Shown here: positions 18,597-59,928 of the stretch, in pieces
Numbering within the stretch: position 1 is the stretch's first letter
Layout of the letters: every line of letters starts with the position of its first letter
Source of the DNA: Prochloraceae cyanobacterium
GTDB taxonomy: Bacteria > Cyanobacteriota > Cyanobacteriia > Cyanobacteriales > JASJDA01
Direction: 5' to 3'
NCBI GenBank assembly: GCA_030065755.1
Contig: JASJDA010000003.1
Coordinates: forward strand, 27,541 to 91,540
Length of the DNA stretch: 64,000 nucleotides
Notes under the pieces: generated by a model
Told to the model about the DNA's origin: nothing
Database searches by the model: none
Seen by the model: only the letters and a program-made list of their open reading frames with translations
Made by a program: the position numbers and the translations under genes

Positions 18597-20843
18597 ATGA
18601 ACTCAACCACATTGACCGCTCCTGAGCAATTTCAATTTCAGGTTCCCCACTGGCTTCAAGAATGCTTGCTAGCTGAGGAAAAAGGCAATAATGAAGACAA
18701 TCATCTAGTTTGTAGTGCTTTTCAATTTGCCTATCAATTGCACGAAGGACAGTATCGTAAATCTGGGGAACCCTATATAGGTCACCCAGTGGCTGTTGCT
18801 GGTTTACTTCGGGATCTCGGCGGTGACAGTGCTATGATAGCTGCTGGTTTCCTACACGACGTAGTCGAAGATACCGAAACGACGATCGAAGAAATTGAAG
18901 AACGCTTTGGTGCTGAGGTAAGACAGTTAGTAGAGGGTGTCACTAAACTATCTAAATTTAACTTCTCCAGTAAAACCGAACGTCAAGCAGAGAACTTTCG
19001 CCGCATGTTCCTGGCGATGGCGAAAGACATTAGAGTGATTGTAGTTAAATTAGCCGATCGCCTCCATAATATGCGCACGCTCCAACCTCTGAGACCGGAG
19101 AAACAGAAGCGCATTGCACTAGAAACGCGAGAAATCTTTGCTCCTTTAGCTAATCGCTTGGGGATTGGATGTTTTAAGTGGGAATTAGAAGATTTATCTT
19201 TTAAATACTTAGAACCAGAAGCTTATCGGAAAATACAAGGATTGGTAGCCGAAAAGCGGGTCGATCGCGAAGCCAGACTGGAAAAAGTTATTGAACTTCT
19301 ACGGGAACGTTTGAGGAAAATCGGCATCAATGTCTTTGAAGTCAAAGGTCGTCCCAAGCACCTTTACGGCATTTACCATAAAATGTATAGGCTGCAAAAA
19401 GAATTTACGGAAATTTACGATCTCGCTGGGGTGCGTATCATCGTCAATACAAATGAAGAATGTTATCGTACCTTAGCGGTGGCTCACGACGCTTTTAAAC
19501 CAATTCCAGGTCGTTTTAAAGATTATATCGGCTTGCCTAAACCTAACCGCTACCAATCCCTTCACACTACAGTAGTGGGTTTACACGGTCGTCCTTTGGA
19601 AATACAGATCCGCACCCTGGAAATGCATCAAGTTGCTGAATACGGGATCGCTGCTCACTGGAAATATAAAGAAACTGGCGGATCTAACTTCACCAAGTCA
19701 ACCTCAGAAGACGAAAAATTTACTTGGTTGCGACAACTGCTAGAGTGGCAAAAGGAATTAAAAGACTCTCAGGAGTATATAGATAGTCTCAAAGATAATT
19801 TATTTGAGGACGACGTATACGTATTTACTCCTAAGGGGGACGTAATCGCGCTGGCTCAAGGAGCCACAGCAGTAGATTTTGCCTATCGAATTCACACAGA
19901 AGTAGGCAATCACATGAAAGGAGCTAGAATTAACGGACGGTGGTCGGTTTTGGATACTCCACTGAAAAATGGGGATATTGTGGAAATTGTTACCAGTAAA
20001 AACAGCCATCCCAGTTTAGATTGGCTTAACTTTGCTGTTACACCCAGTGCGAGGAATCGCATCAGACAGTGGTATAAGCGATCGCACCGAGACGAAAATG
20101 TGGCTCGCGCTCAAAAATTGCTAGAAAAAGAATTGGGTAAAAGTAGTTTAGAAGCACTGCTCAAATCCGATCCCATGCAAACTGTAGCTGGTAGGTGCAA
20201 TTATCAAAATGTTGAAGACTTACTAGCTGCTCTCGGTTACGGAGAAATAACTTTAAACCAAGTAGTTAACAAACTGCGAGAAGAGATTAAAGCGCAACAA
20301 CCCCCAGAAGAAGAAACAGAATTTCAACCAGAATTACCTCCTCAAACCCAAGCAAAGGATATCAAAAGCGATCGAGGAGATCGATCTCCTATTATTGGTA
20401 TAGAAGGAATGGTCTATTATGTTGCTGGCTGTTGCAACCCCGTTCCTGGGGAACCGATTATCGGTATTGTTACTCGCTCTGCTAAAGGAATTTCCATTCA
20501 TCGCCAAGGATGTCCTAATGTAGAAGGGGTCCCAGGGGAGCGCCTAATTCCAGTGAGTTGGAACCGAAGCAATGCTAACGGAAGACCTCAGACTTATCCA
20601 GTTGACATTCAAATTGAAGCGATCGATCGCGTTGGGGTACTCAGGGATATTTTGGCGCGCTTGAGTGATGAAAATATTAACGTGCGTAATGCTGGTGTGA
20701 AAACTAGTTTTGGCAAACCTGCTTTGATTTTCTTGAGCGTTGACGTGACCGATCGTCAACAATTAGAGTGCAGCATCAAAAAAATCAGAAATATGTGCGA
20801 TATCCTCAATATTCGTCGGATAACTGAGGCTGATAACCTGTAG
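18597..20843 (+). CDS. spoT: Bifunctional (p)ppGpp synthetase/hydrolase (long RSH)
   Basis: 748 residues. The HD hydrolase domain (~40-200) contains HEGQYRKSGEPYIGHP, FLHDVVEDTETT and LADRLHNMRTL. The synthetase domain (~240-370) contains GRPKHLYGIYHKMY, YDLAGVRIIV and FKDYIGLPKPNRYQSLHTTV. The TGS domain (~405-465) starts DVYVFTPKGDVIALAQGATAVDFAY; a C-terminal ACT domain (~670-745) starts YPVDIQIEAIDRVGVLRDIL. Both catalytic centres look intact, so it can make and degrade the stringent alarmone, as expected of the single long RSH in cyanobacteria. The TAG stop lies inside a 28-nt REP palindrome (20840-20867), which probably also limits read-through into the convergent rpmA. Confidence 0.95.
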   Translation: MNSTTLTAPEQFQFQVPHWLQECLLAEEKGNNEDNHLVCSAFQFAYQLHEGQYRKSGEPYIGHPVAVAGLLRDLGGDSAMIAAGFLHDVVEDTETTIEEIEERFGAEVRQLVEGVTKLSKFNFSSKTERQAENFRRMFLAMAKDIRVIVVKLADRLHNMRTLQPLRPEKQKRIALETREIFAPLANRLGIGCFKWELEDLSFKYLEPEAYRKIQGLVAEKRVDREARLEKVIELLRERLRKIGINVFEVKGRPKHLYGIYHKMYRLQKEFTEIYDLAGVRIIVNTNEECYRTLAVAHDAFKPIPGRFKDYIGLPKPNRYQSLHTTVVGLHGRPLEIQIRTLEMHQVAEYGIAAHWKYKETGGSNFTKSTSEDEKFTWLRQLLEWQKELKDSQEYIDSLKDNLFEDDVYVFTPKGDVIALAQGATAVDFAYRIHTEVGNHMKGARINGRWSVLDTPLKNGDIVEIVTSKNSHPSLDWLNFAVTPSARNRIRQWYKRSHRDENVARAQKLLEKELGKSSLEALLKSDPMQTVAGRCNYQNVEDLLAALGYGEITLNQVVNKLREEIKAQQPPEEETEFQPELPPQTQAKDIKSDRGDRSPIIGIEGMVYYVAGCCNPVPGEPIIGIVTRSAKGISIHRQGCPNVEGVPGERLIPVSWNRSNANGRPQTYPVDIQIEAIDRVGVLRDILARLSDENINVRNAGVKTSFGKPALIFLSVDVTDRQQLECSIKKIRNMCDILNIRRITEADNL

Positions 20844-20867
20844 AGACGTTTCATGAAACGTCTCTAC
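20840..20867. repeat. Perfect 28-nt REP palindrome, copy 1 (centre TCATGA)
   Basis: Half-site GTAGAGACGTTTCATG followed by its complement. Identical arms occur at 55540-55567 and 55870-55897; only the base pair flanking CATG changes (T-A here, G-C and C-G there). It contains the spoT stop codon and lies between convergent spoT and rpmA. Confidence 0.9.
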
Positions 20868-54754: not shown

Positions 54755-55153
54755 GTGAATAGAAATTCTGTATCAGTTAACACAAAATTTGCTATCGGTG
54801 ATGATTTGCTAGTTAATCGTATTGGTTACGGTGCAATGAGACTCACTGGACAACCTGGTAATTTTGGGCCTTATCGAGACTGGGAAGCAGGAGAAAAGCT
54901 TTTACGTCGTGCCTTTGAATTGGGTGTAAATTTCATCGATACTGCCGAAGCTTATGGCCCAGGTTTCAATGAAGAAATTATCGCCTATGCTTTGCATCCA
55001 TACTCAGAAGATTTAGTTATTGCTACTAAAGGCGGAATTAATAAACCCGCACCCGATAATATTCAAGCCGATGGGAGACCAGAAAGTCTCAGACGCAGCG
55101 TTGAAGCTAGTTTAAAACGGCTTAAATTAGAACAAATCGATACAATAAATTAA
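54755..55153 (+). pseudogene. Aldo-keto reductase truncated after ~132 residues
   Basis: The best start is GTG at 54755 with TTGGAG 8 nt upstream; the frame also extends to 54695. NRIGYGAMRLTGQPGNFGPY, FELGVNFIDTAEAYGPG (catalytic Asp and Tyr) and LVIATKGGI (Lys) match an aldo-keto reductase of 280-300 residues, but the protein stops after KLEQIDTIN-type sequence (LKLEQIDTIN), losing the C-terminal half with the catalytic His region. The break coincides with the start of a duplicated chlH tail (55150-55217). A functional enzyme is unlikely. Confidence 0.8.
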
Positions 55154-55217
55154 AAATTAATCAATCCCTTCAATTTAATCTTCAACTTTTCGATATAAAT
55201 CTCGCAAACGATCGAGA
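55150..55217 (-). pseudogene. Duplicated 3' tail of chlH
   Basis: 68 nt matching the true chlH end at 55929-55996 with 7 differences. The match covers the stop codon, 7 nt beyond it and the last ~20 codons ([13 protein letters not shown] here, [13 protein letters not shown] in chlH), with an in-frame stop in the copy. It adjoins the broken aldo-keto reductase on one side and the RAYT transposase gene on the other. Confidence 0.8.
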
Positions 55218-55271: not shown

Positions 55272-55850
55272 TTACATCCACAAAGAAGCGGAATTATTTC
55301 GATCTTTTTCCCATTTGGCAGGATTATTAATTATATATTGTCTAATTCTGTCTAAAGAACCATCCTTACGGATAACGCGATCGTAAAATCTCGATTGCCA
55401 GGCAAAATTTTGGCGATTATTTGTTCGACACCAACGGGTTACAGATGATTTGTATGACCTGATAATTACACCCAAAGAATTTGATTTTGGGGACATTTGC
55501 GACATTGCCCTAGATAGATCGTATTTATCATTTGACCGTGTAGAGACGTTGCATGCAACGTCTCTACAATATCGATCGGGTTTGTCAATAACAATAATGC
55601 CATGAACGTGATTCGGCATAATTACGTATTCATCTATATATGTATATTTAGAATGATTAGGAATTTCTAACCAAAATTGTCGGGCAATTTTTCCAATAGC
55701 AGAGAGTTGCATTTGTCCGTTGATAATATTTCCAAAATATGGAAGGCGATCGCCCGTACAAATTGTCACAAAATACCAACCATTAGCCCCATAATCCCTG
55801 TTAGGCAATCGGATAGATTCAATACGATATTTTTTTTTATACAATGTCAT
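55272..55850 (-). CDS. REP-associated tyrosine transposase (RAYT, Y1 HUH family)
   Basis: 192 residues. YDRVIRKDGSLDRIRQYIIN carries the catalytic Tyr region; VIMPNHVHGIIVI is the HUH (His-x-His) metal motif; YFVTICTGDRLPYFG is the usual N-terminal strand. The family processes single-stranded REP hairpins. One REP palindrome (55540-55567) lies inside the coding region, in frame, adding about YCRDVACNVSTR; another (55870-55897) lies 20 nt before the start. Starts at the ATG at 55850 with a clean Y1 fold. Intact reading frame, so activity is plausible unless the insertion disturbs it. Confidence 0.88.
   Translation of the reverse strand: MTLYKKKYRIESIRLPNRDYGANGWYFVTICTGDRLPYFGNIINGQMQLSAIGKIARQFWLEIPNHSKYTYIDEYVIMPNHVHGIIVIDKPDRYCRDVACNVSTRSNDKYDLSRAMSQMSPKSNSLGVIIRSYKSSVTRWCRTNNRQNFAWQSRFYDRVIRKDGSLDRIRQYIINNPAKWEKDRNNSASLWM
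55540..55567. repeat. Perfect 28-nt REP palindrome, copy 2 (centre GCATGC), inside the RAYT gene
   Basis: Half-site GTAGAGACGTTGCATG with its exact complement. It is read in frame within the transposase gene. Confidence 0.95.
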
Positions 55851-55869
55851 GGCAATATCCTAAAACCAT

Positions 55870-55897
55870 GTAGAGACGTTCCATGGAACGTCTCTAC
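55870..55897. repeat. Perfect 28-nt REP palindrome, copy 3 (centre CCATGG), upstream of RAYT
   Basis: Half-site GTAGAGACGTTCCATG with its exact complement. It lies between the RAYT start and the chlH stop. Confidence 0.95.
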
Positions 55898-55935
55898 AAT
55901 ATTTTGTTATAGGATTAAATTACCCAAATTAAAAA

Positions 55936-58900
55936 TTAATCGATCCCTTCAATTCGATCTTCAACTTCTTGATACAAATCGCGCAAACGATCGAGATTTT
56001 CTTCACTAGTTTCCCAATAACCGCGACCATTTACTTCCAATAAAGTACCGACTAATTTGCGGAAAGAATTGGGATTTAAATTCATTAACCGCCGACACAT
56101 TTCTTCATCTTTAATGAAGGTATCGTTTGCGTCTTCATATACCCAATTATCTACCGCGCCAGCAGTTGCAGACCAACCCATTGTATTCACCAGACGCTTG
56201 GAAAGTTCCCTGACGCCTTCGTAACCGTGGTTTAACATCCCTTCGTACCATTTGGGATTTAATAGCTTAGTACGGGCATCTAAACGCACGGTTTCTGATA
56301 AGGTACGTACTTGGGCGTTAGCAGTGGTGGTATCGGCGATATAAGCAGTGGGTTTTTTCCCGTCTTTACGCAGAGTAGCCACTACTTTAGTCGGATCTGA
56401 GTCAAAATAGTGAGAAACATCGGTCAAACTAATCTCAGAAGAATCTAGATTTTGGAAAGTAACTTCAGCAGTTTTTAAGGCTGCTTCAAACACTTTTCGA
56501 TCGTCTTTCATAACTCCAGGATTGTCAGAATCAAAGGCAAAAGATTTGCGTTTGAGATACATTTCCTGTAATTCTGCTTCTTCTTCCCAACTGCTATTTT
56601 CTACTGCTAAATTGACGTTGGAAGAATAAGAACCAGAAGCATTAGAGAAGACTCGAGTAGCTGCTTGACGGAGATTAATTCCCATCTCCTCTGCTTGTTC
56701 TAAAGCGTGTTTGCGGACGTAATTCATCTCAATTGGTTCGTCTGCTTCTGCTGCCATTTTCACAGCTTGGTCGAGTAAATTCATTTGGTTAATGAATAAA
56801 TCGCGGAAGACACCAGAACAATTAACTACCACGTCAACGCGGGGACGACCTAATTCTTCGAGGGGAATCAATTCTAATTTATTCACCCTTCCTAACGCAT
56901 CGGGTACGGGTTTAACTCCCACCATCCACATAATTTGTGCGAGGGATTCTCCGTAGGTTTTAATGTTATCGGTTCCCCAGAGTACGCAAGCAATAGTTTC
57001 GGGATATTTGCCGCCATTTTCTGCCATTTGCCGCGATAACAAGCGATCGACTACTACTTTAGCCGACTGAACTGCTGCCATCGTCGGTATAGACTGAGGA
57101 TCGAGGGCGTGTATGTTCTTTCCTGTAGGTAATACGTCGGGGTTGCGGATGGGATCTCCTCCTGGTCCTGGAAGTACGTATTCCCCTTCTAATGCTTTGA
57201 GTAACCCACCTAGTTCGTTATCCGCACATACTTGTTCTAAACAGAATTCTAGATATTCAAACAAGGGTTTTAGTGCGTCGGTGTCTACTTTTGCGTAACC
57301 GAGTTCGTGTAATTTTTGCACCCAAGGCGCTTTTTTACCGAGGTTGAAGATGTTTAGTCTTGCGATCGCCGATACCCTTCCGTCCGCATCTACTTGCGCT
57401 TGGACTAGCGCGCCAACAGCTTCGCGAGTTGCTTCGGTTATTTGTTGCAACAGTTCTACATCTTCTAGAACACCTTTATCGCTGTTAGTGTAGATTTCGT
57501 CGATATCGCGATCGAGACTATTAGCAATAATGCGAGGTAAAGAGATTATTTCTTCTTCTTCGCGATCGAGAGAAGCGATATTTACTAGGGTTGCGACTGC
57601 TTCTTCTGCTGTGGGTGGTTTCCCAATAACGTGGAGTCCGCAGGGTAATAAGCGAGATTCGATTTCTATCAACTTCTTATAAACCGAACCGACGATCGCG
57701 TCTCTTTCTTCTGCAGTCAAATCTTTGGCGTCTGTTTCTGGTAAGTCGATATCCTTATCTAAATTCACCAAGCGACATTTATCGACGATCGTATTCACAA
57801 TAGGAATACCCCGTCCTGTATCTTTTAGTGTTTGATAGGAACCAATTAACTCGCTTAACTCTTTCAACCCTTTATATAAACCTGCATTTTCCGCAGGAGG
57901 AGTCAGGTAAGAAATAGTTTCCGCATAACTGCGACGTTTGGCGATCGTTGCTTCGGAGGGATTATTTGCAGCGTAATAGTACAAATTGGGAATACTTCCG
58001 ATCAGGTTATCTGGGTAGCAGTCCCCAGACATTCCCATCTGTTTACCTGGCATAAATTCTAAGCTTCCGTGAGTTCCAAAGTGCAAAACTGCGTCAGCTT
58101 TCCAGACCTGATTCAAATAGGTGTAATATGCTGCAAAACCGTGGTGAGGACTTGCCGATCGAGAGAATAACAACCGCATGGGATCCCCTTCATAACCGAA
58201 GGTGGGTTGCACCCCTATAAATACATTACCGAAGTGTTTGCCATAGATTAGCAAATTTTGTCCGTCGCTGTTAAGATGTCCTGGAGGTGGACCCCAATTC
58301 TCTTCTAAACGTACCGAATAAGGGGTCAGTCTTTCGTATTGTTCCACTGACATCCGATGAGCTATATTGAGTTCTGGACTTTGATACTGGGCTTGTAAGT
58401 CGTGAATGACATCCTGCATTAATTGTTCTGCAGACTCTGGCAAATCTTGAATGTCGTAGCCGTTATTTTTCAAAGCCTTCATCACTTCGTAAATAGACCC
58501 GAACACGTCTAAATAAGCAGCAGTACCGATGTTTCCTTTATCTGGGGGAAAACTAAAAACAGTGATGGCAACTTTCTTGTTTAATTTGGGCTTTTTACGT
58601 AAATTAGCCCATTTCATTGCTCTTTGGGCGACAGCTTCGATGCGATCTTGTAGGGCGATCGCCTTTCCTGTTACCCCATCTCTTCCAGACATGATAATCG
58701 GTTCGATCGCGCCGTCTAGTTCTGGTATGGCGATTTGTAAAGCTACTTGAATCGGATGCAAGCCCAGATCGCTTTTTTCCCACTCTTCAGTAGTTTGGAA
58801 AACTAGAGGCAACGCTACCATATAAGGGCGATTTAATCTCTTAAGAGATTCTATTGCTTTGGGGTGATCTTGTCTAGCTGGGCCCCCCACTAAAGCAAAT

Positions 58901-59928
58901 CCTGTCAAGGATACAACTGTATCCACTATGGCCATGGGTGCCATTCCTTTTACTGCGCTATCCCAGAAATATGTATCTACAGGTTTAGAAAAGTCCAAAC
59001 CTCCAGCAAATACAGCAATTACTCTAGCACCCATTGCTTCGAGTTCCTGTACCATTGCTACATAATGGGCATCATCTCCAGTAACTAGGTGAGTCCGTTG
59101 CAATACCAATCCTATACAGGGAGCAAGAGGATCTTTAAGTTCTTCTGCAATATCAGAGCGGCTACTATACCATTTAAAATATTCTTTGACATCCTCAAAC
59201 ATTTTTGGCGCTAGTGGATGCCAAATTCCCATATCGGGATAAACTACTGGTTCTTGATATTGAACTTTTTTATCTTTCTTTAAGTCCTTAAATACGTATT
59301 TATCAGCTAACATCAGCATGAAGTTTTCTAGGTTTTGAGGAGAACCTCCCAACCAATATTGGAAACTTAGCATGAAGTTGCGAGCATCCTGCGCCTTGTC
59401 CATTGGCATATATTTTAAGACTTTAGGCAAGGTGCGCAGTAGTTTCAGCATCCCGTCTTGGAAGGAAGCGCCAGAGTTTTCCTTGCGTTTGCGCATGAAT
59501 TTTGCTATTGCGCTTTTTGACTGACCTAGTTGCGCCATGGAGAAGCTACCCAACTTATTGAGGCGCATTACTTGAGGCATGGAGGGAAAGACTACAATAG
59601 CATCGAGTTTATCTCGGTGAGGTTTAACTACAGAAACTACTTTTTCTGCTAGATCTTCAATGAAAATCAGAGAAGCGATAAAAATATTTGCCTCAGCAAC
59701 ATCTTGCTTGAAGTCTTCGTAATTTTCTGGCGATCGCAATTCTTCGAGTAAATAACCGTTAATTTCTATGGCTATATCGGGATTATTTTCGTTTATAGTT
59801 CTTACGGCTGCCGATAGAGAACTTTGATACTGAGGCTCTAACACGACATAGACCACCTTAAGCAAAGAACGATCTTTCACATTTTCTGGGGAAATGTGCC
59901 GAATGGTGGACTTGACGTGAGTGAACAT
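55936..59928 (-). CDS. chlH: Magnesium chelatase subunit H
   Basis: 1330 residues, the normal length. Recognisable blocks are [20 protein letters not shown] near the N-terminus, [80 protein letters not shown] and [20 protein letters not shown]. ChlH binds protoporphyrin IX and, with the ATPase subunits ChlI and ChlD, inserts Mg2+, the first committed step of chlorophyll synthesis. ChlI and ChlD are not here, as usual for cyanobacteria. Start ATG at 59928 with GGAG 9-12 nt upstream. A partial copy of its 3' end lies at 55150. Confidence 0.97.

What the first reader, a model, noticed from the sequence alone, without database searches (positions are those of the whole stretch)
55540..55897. RAYT transposase with its own REP palindromes, one inside the gene
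Two perfect 28-nt palindromes flank and interrupt the Y1 transposase gene and a third caps spoT. The arms are identical; only the pair next to CATG varies (TA, GC, CG), always keeping the palindrome. Such compensating change argues for selection or processing of the hairpin. The internal copy is in frame, adding about 12 residues between HUH and Tyr motifs.
Basis: partly seen in the sequence, partly recalled or inferred. Interest (0 to 1): 0.62.

Follow-up and report, generated by a model that had tools for sequence, protein, structure and literature searches.

The report
Transposase gene carrying its own repeat
A cyanobacterial REP-type transposase gene carries, inside its reading frame, a copy of the same DNA hairpin that lies just upstream of it; this internal hairpin is a known habit of its enzyme family, but here it changes in step with the outer copy, and the gene proves to be parked behind a chlorophyll gene (chlH) in many cyanobacteria.

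Summary
The 192-aa Y1/HUH protein (55275-55850, minus) is a REP-associated tyrosine transposase (RAYT, TnpA_REP). A perfect 30-nt palindrome lies just upstream of its start codon, a second lies in frame between HUH and Tyr, and a third supplies the stop codon of spoT. The arrangement is not new in kind: Quentin et al. 2018 (PMC6006769) define TnpA_REP subclass 2.4 by 'double-foot' GTAG...CTAC REPs and by REPs inserted in the tnpA_REP gene, and every subclass feature tested here is met. What I add: (1) in 206 distinct homologue loci palindromes sit in the HUH-Tyr linker at 3.8/kb against 0.14 and 0.13/kb in the rest of the gene; (2) the internal REP matches its own outer REP better than those of the nearest relatives (p=7e-9), and differences come as paired changes; (3) the RAYT stands directly behind chlH, on the same strand, in about 20 genomes of many cyanobacterial families, its divergence follows that of chlH (Mantel r=0.62), and internal and 5' REPs have changed together there. 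Best reading: a REPtron whose enzyme keeps recopying, or selecting, its own internal substrate in a tolerant disordered loop. A dedicated regulatory role is not excluded.

The parts
55275..55850 (-). RAYT / TnpA_REP gene (192 aa; ORF with stop 55272-55850). HUH = NHVH (residues 80-83), WQ 151-152, Y motif YIINNP with putative catalytic Y172
55539..55568 (.). internal double-foot REP, TGTAGAGACGTTGCATGCAACGTCTCTACA; encodes residues 95-104 (CRDVACNVST)
   Evidence: predicted disordered loop; RNA hairpin z = -4.4
55869..55898 (.). 5' REP, TGTAGAGACGTTCCATGGAACGTCTCTACA, between chlH and the RAYT start codon
20840..20867 (.). solo REP, GTAGAGACGTTTCATGAAACGTCTCTAC; its GTAG provides the TAG stop of spoT
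18597..20843 (+). RelA/SpoT-type gene (748 aa; identified from its sequence) ending inside the solo REP
55936..59928 (-). chlH-type magnesium chelatase large subunit gene, directly upstream of and co-directional with the RAYT; the same neighbour in about 20 other genomes
   Evidence: gene identity from its sequence
55147..55217 (-). second, 90% identical copy of the last 71 nt around the chlH 3' end, on the far side of the RAYT; marks a rearrangement junction with a truncated aldo/keto reductase gene

Best explanation
This is a REPtron of TnpA_REP subclass 2.4: a single-strand-specific HUH/Y1 nuclease gene with its own double-foot REP hairpins. The enzyme recognises GTAG plus hairpin on single-stranded DNA and spreads or rewrites REPs; its own gene, lying beside its cognate REP, is the target it meets most often. 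In-frame copies survive almost only in the disordered loop between the HUH strand and helix C, which tolerates about 10 extra residues in either of the two frames that avoid TAG. The internal copy is not a passive fossil: it is repeatedly renewed, or kept by selection, so that it matches the current REP of the locus. Shown here: the anatomy, the position bias, the matching of internal and outer REP, the recurrent gains and frame switches, and the stable seat behind chlH. Inferred from relatives: binding and cleavage of the hairpin, and that renewal runs through the RAYT's own activity or gene conversion.
For: Linker 115 palindromes (3.8/kb) versus 7 and 4 (0.14 and 0.13/kb) in the N and C parts of 206 distinct RAYT loci. 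Internal REP similarity to own flank 0.87, to the nearest relative's flank 0.72, to others 0.52, p=7e-9. Differences from own flank: 41 both-sided paired changes versus 48 broken pairs, with few half-decayed copies. Two frames used 45:30 and the stop frame 0 times; at least 35 presence/absence and 16 frame changes on a linker-free tree. REP-encoded residues fall in a low-confidence loop (residues 99-103 pLDDT < 50) of an otherwise confident model (mean 85.7) whose best PDB match is RAYT bound to a REP hairpin. chlH-linked orthologues have different internal REPs, most of which equal or nearly equal their own 5' REP.
Against: No biochemistry exists for this enzyme. If the loop were merely tolerant, the linker should hold fewer REPs than the free intergenic flanks; it holds about as many or more (3.8/kb versus about 2.6/kb in the nearest 150 bp upstream), although only about 2 in 9 random insertions would keep an open frame. 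That leaves room for selection or target preference. The sample was found by similarity to proteins with inserts; in the closest group, which would be found without the linker, 24 of 31 have the insert.
Confidence: 0.62

Rival explanations
1. The internal REP is a working cis-element: the hairpin in the RAYT's own mRNA or single-stranded gene DNA binds RAYT (or stalls ribosomes) and limits its synthesis, together with the 5' REP beside the ribosome-binding site. It is kept by selection and must track RAYT specificity.
For: Internal REP present in more loci (107) than an upstream (88) or downstream REP (68); at least as dense as in the flanks despite frame constraints; strong RNA hairpin; coupled change with the 5' REP in chlH-linked orthologues.
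Against: About half of the family lacks it, including members that keep flanking REPs (40 loci; L016, L069 and L071 at the same chlH seat); 35 gains or losses on the tree; position and frame vary; no expression data.
Confidence: 0.23
2. Paired variation and perfect arms arise by mutation bias alone: hairpin-templated repair makes any quasi-palindrome perfect, with no role for the RAYT or selection, and the internal REP is an old neutral insertion.
For: Coupled changes are what templated correction would give; decayed copies are frequent elsewhere in the genome (10 of 14 imperfect).
Against: It does not explain why the internal REP follows the sequence of the separate 5' REP, nor the bias to the linker.
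Confidence: 0.08
3. A chance in-frame palindrome or misread frame: the real RAYT is shorter or a pseudogene and the palindrome is simply intergenic debris.
For: G007 and G102 carry broken versions at the same seat.
Against: The ORF is intact, with all motifs on both sides of the palindrome in one frame; confident fold on both sides; dozens of in-frame homologues.
Confidence: 0.02

Closest known systems
TnpA_REP subclass 2.4 of Quentin et al. 2018 (PMC6006769), which its Table 1 equates with group 4 of Bertels et al.
   Same: NH[IFV]H, WQ and YIxNNP motifs; variable insert between HUH strand and helix C; double-foot GTAG...CTAC REPs; REPs inserted in frame in the tnpA_REP gene between HuH and Y; Cyanobacteria and Bacteroidetes.
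   Different: Nothing that excludes membership. Not found in the passages of that paper that I read: matching of internal to own outer REP, recurrent gain in two frames, the chlH-linked lineage.
GTAG-tagged REPs of Di Nocera et al. 2013 (PMC3733652), including families reported from Cyanobacteria
   Same: GTAG-tagged palindromes near RAYT genes, often providing TAG stop codons to flanking ORFs, sometimes intragenic.
   Different: GTAG is described there as unpaired at one end; here it is paired with CTAC (double foot). That paper lists intragenic REPs in many genes, notably DNA repair genes; I saw no mention of REPs inside RAYT genes.
E. coli TnpA_REP / REPtron Ec (PDB 4er8; PMC8266576)
   Same: Fold and HUH/Y1 architecture; GTAG plus hairpin recognised on ssDNA.
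   Different: Short link of about 10 residues between HUH strand and helix C; bulged REP stems (PMC8266576); no internal REP in the short link.
IS200/IS605 transposases (IS608, ISDra2)
   Same: HUH/Y1 fold, next best structural matches.
   Different: Mobile elements with their own ends; here the gene is locus-stable behind chlH and lacks a downstream REP.

Membership tests
RAYT / TnpA_REP | HUH motif and single catalytic Tyr in a Y1 transposase fold | tested here: met
   NHVH, WQ and YIINNP conserved; model matches 4er8 best, E 1.6e-6
RAYT / TnpA_REP | curated family score | tested here: inconclusive
   NF047646 REP_Tyr_transpos 65.5 bits, E 4.6e-18, under the cut-off of 80; Pfam Y1_Tnp 22.4 bits, cut-off 23
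RAYT / TnpA_REP | gene flanked by cognate GTAG REPs in inverted arrangement | tested here: inconclusive
   5' REP and internal REP present, none within 500 bp downstream; the REPs are palindromes, so orientation is undefined
RAYT / TnpA_REP | cognate REPs dispersed in the genome | tested here: met
   4 perfect and 10 near copies in 8.46 Mb, a low number
TnpA_REP subclass 2.4 | motifs NH[IFV]H, WQ, YIxNNP | tested here: met
   NHVH, WQ, YIINNP
TnpA_REP subclass 2.4 | double-foot REP (GTAG at 5', CTAC at 3', paired) | tested here: met
TnpA_REP subclass 2.4 | REP inserted in frame in tnpA_REP between HuH and Y | tested here: met
   residues 95-104 between H83 and Y172
TnpA_REP subclass 2.4 | placement in the published class tree | not tested
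   the published alignment was not available here
RAYT / TnpA_REP | binding and cleavage of single-stranded REP | not testable with these tools
   needs the purified protein

The most novel reading that the evidence does not exclude
The internal REP is a functional, co-evolving cis-element of the RAYT gene: the enzyme's target sits inside its own coding sequence and tracks its specificity, so the gene regulates itself or always carries a fresh template of its substrate, and in a cyanobacterial lineage this unit is stably tied to the end of the chlH transcript.
Probability: 0.23. Interest if true: 0.66.

Novelty: new member of a known kind. Interest (0 to 1): 0.42.

Why it matters
RAYTs are a well-known case of domesticated bacterial transposases, and how they spread and keep REPs is open. 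A REP in the enzyme's own reading frame records, inside one gene, which substrate the enzyme has been handling. The chlH-linked lineage fixes the locus, so enzyme, outer REP and inner REP can be followed through the same genomes; this makes the questions of RAYT-REP co-evolution and of a possible role of the inner REP directly testable.

Tried and rejected
Tying REP abundance to the presence of this RAYT failed: the most REP-rich relatives (G032, G035) have no detectable close RAYT. The Pfam Y1_Tnp scan mostly found compact Y1 transposases and is insensitive to this subclass (22.4 bits for the window protein), so it cannot show absence. Considered and dropped: a CRISPR or tandem array (no array), a terminator (perfect palindrome in frame, no T run), HIP1 (different sequence). 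The empty-site comparison at spoT in G001 is too diverged to give an exact junction. Searches of the paper library for the palindrome arms as text gave nothing on REPs. A text search for chlH with transposase and REP turned up no report of the linkage among the listed papers. The reductase 3' half was not found in the own genome, so the rearrangement was not followed further.

Full report
WHAT IS THERE. The window is from a cyanobacterial genome of 8.46 Mb in 455 contigs. At 55272-55850 (minus) an ORF of 192 aa has the HUH motif NHVH, WQ and YIINNP. It scores as REP-associated tyrosine transposase in NCBIfam (65.5 bits, below the 80-bit cut-off) and just below the Pfam Y1_Tnp cut-off. An AlphaFold2 model from 71 window and locus proteins has mean pLDDT 85.7; its best PDB match is E. 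coli RAYT bound to a REP hairpin, 4er8. Two perfect 30-nt palindromes belong to it: 55869-55898, upstream of the start codon, and 55539-55568, in frame, encoding CRDVACNVST (residues 95-104). A third, 20840-20867, supplies the TAG stop of spoT. Shuffled windows contain none. The genome holds 4 copies matching the pattern perfectly and 14 within three mismatches. Of these only the RAYT copy lies clearly inside a convincing gene; the spoT copy overlaps the gene's end.

A CLASS-WIDE HABIT, ALREADY PUBLISHED. Homologues in other families carry palindromes at the same place with other sequences. Over 206 distinct RAYT loci (137 from a sample of 391 genomes of the order; 69 from the GTDB-wide scan) I counted palindromes with stems of 10 bp or more: 115 in the HUH-Tyr linker (3.8/kb), 7 in the N part and 4 in the C part (0.14 and 0.13/kb), with 107 upstream and 86 downstream within 500 bp. 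The hosts named span Cyanobacteria, Bacteroidota, Chloroflexota, Planctomycetes, Desulfobacterota and Patescibacteria, some with the very same palindrome as the window (L080, L090). The literature check then showed that Quentin et al. 2018 (PMC6006769) name this as the distinguishing feature of TnpA_REP subclass 2.4: double-foot REPs and REP insertions within tnpA_REP, in frame, generally between HuH and Y, in a peripheral loop. The window gene meets each subclass feature that could be tested. So the finding is a new member of a known kind.

BEYOND THAT DESCRIPTION. (a) Matching. In the 74 loci with both, the internal REP resembles its own flanking REP (mean 0.87) more than the flanking REP of the nearest relative (0.72) or of others (0.52), Wilcoxon p = 7e-9. 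In 75 loci where the internal copy is at least 70% like a flanking one, 889 pairs are the same, 41 changed on both sides and still paired, 11 changed to G-T and 48 broken. With the observed change rate about 2 both-sided paired changes would be expected by independent mutation (my estimate from these counts). Half-decayed internal copies are few. (b) Recurrence. Both frames that avoid the TAG in GTAG are used (45 and 30), the third never. On a tree built without the linker there are at least 35 gains or losses (about 69 if labels are shuffled) and 16 frame changes. The insert is therefore neither a single old event nor random over the tree. (c) Location in the fold. The model is confident on both sides and disordered exactly at the REP-encoded residues (99-103 below pLDDT 50). 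A few loci have a REP at a second place in the N part. (d) A chlH-linked lineage. In G007 a RAYT remnant of some 35 codons with an intact internal REP lies right behind chlH. A search for chlH in all loci found it next to the RAYT in some 20 further genomes. In all 19 with enough sequence the two genes are co-directional, mostly 70-290 bp apart; RAYT and chlH distances correlate (Mantel r 0.62, p 0.0002); and the linked RAYTs cluster on the tree (5 changes of state against about 20 for shuffled labels). In 80 other genomes, chosen because no linked RAYT was known there, the site behind chlH has no RAYT, but several have a solo REP there, as does, decayed, the sister species G001. At this fixed seat the internal REP differs between orthologues and usually equals or nearly equals the 5' REP of the same gene.

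MECHANISM. Established for relatives (PMC8266576): TnpA_REP recognises GTAG plus hairpin on single-stranded DNA and cleaves nearby. Inferred here: the RAYT gene, lying beside its REP, is the enzyme's most frequent target; only in-frame copies in the tolerant loop survive; renewal by the enzyme or by gene conversion keeps the inner copy like the outer one. Against pure tolerance: the linker holds at least as many REPs per kb as the nearest upstream flank (about 2.6/kb) although most random insertions would break the frame, and internal REPs are found in more loci (107) than upstream (88) or downstream ones (68). That excess could be target preference or selection for a function such as autoregulation; the data do not decide. 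The RNA would fold strongly there (z -4.4), which is necessary but not sufficient.

Compensated variation is real. It shows that the hairpin, not the single bases, is the unit that is copied or kept; it does not by itself show selection. REP abundance does not follow the presence of this RAYT in relatives, probably because REPs outlive lost RAYTs.

CAVEATS. The loci were found with proteins that include the insert. In the closest group, which would be found without it, 24 of 31 carry it; among the other loci of the order sample 34 of 106. Palindrome calls use a 10-bp stem and 40% G+C threshold. Phylum labels of metagenome bins may be wrong for short contigs. Vertical descent at the chlH seat is the simplest reading of (d), but transfer together with chlH is not excluded.

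Noticed in passing
55936-59928 with 55272-55850; L016, L017, L045, L046, L048, L049, L053, L054, L056, L058, L063-L065, L068-L071, L152, L153: A RAYT sits directly behind chlH, on the same strand, in about 20 genomes from many cyanobacterial families, with RAYT and chlH divergence correlated; solo REPs mark the same site in several genomes without the RAYT.
   Followed up: yes
55147-55217 and 55926-55996: 71-nt repeat of the chlH 3' end (90% identical) on both sides of the RAYT; the aldo/keto reductase gene is cut off at 55153. In G001 the intact reductase and chlH are about 25 kb apart on one contig, so the RAYT sits at a rearrangement junction; the missing reductase half was not found in the own genome.
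   Followed up: partly
L044 1477-1641 (G007): RAYT reduced to about 35 codons around a perfect internal REP, right behind chlH, in a genome with 65 copies of the REP.
   Followed up: partly
18597-20843 and 20840-20867: The GTAG of the solo REP provides the TAG stop codon of spoT; in G001 the gene ends differently.
   Followed up: partly
L098, L120, L133, L146 (about 120-140 nt before the HUH motif): A second place in the RAYT gene, in the N-terminal part, also holds REPs in non-cyanobacterial loci.
   Followed up: no
L032, L043 (G004): A RAYT-like protein with many repeated ASNRGNRGGIAPT-type stretches in both the N part and the linker, as if REP-like pieces had been inserted repeatedly.
   Followed up: no
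L080, L090 against window 55539-55568: The identical 28-nt palindrome lies inside RAYT genes of bins named Desulfobacterales and Chlorobiota, suggesting transfer of gene and REP together (bin labels unchecked).
   Followed up: no
G032, G035: 154 and 132 copies of the REP without a detectable close RAYT.
   Followed up: partly
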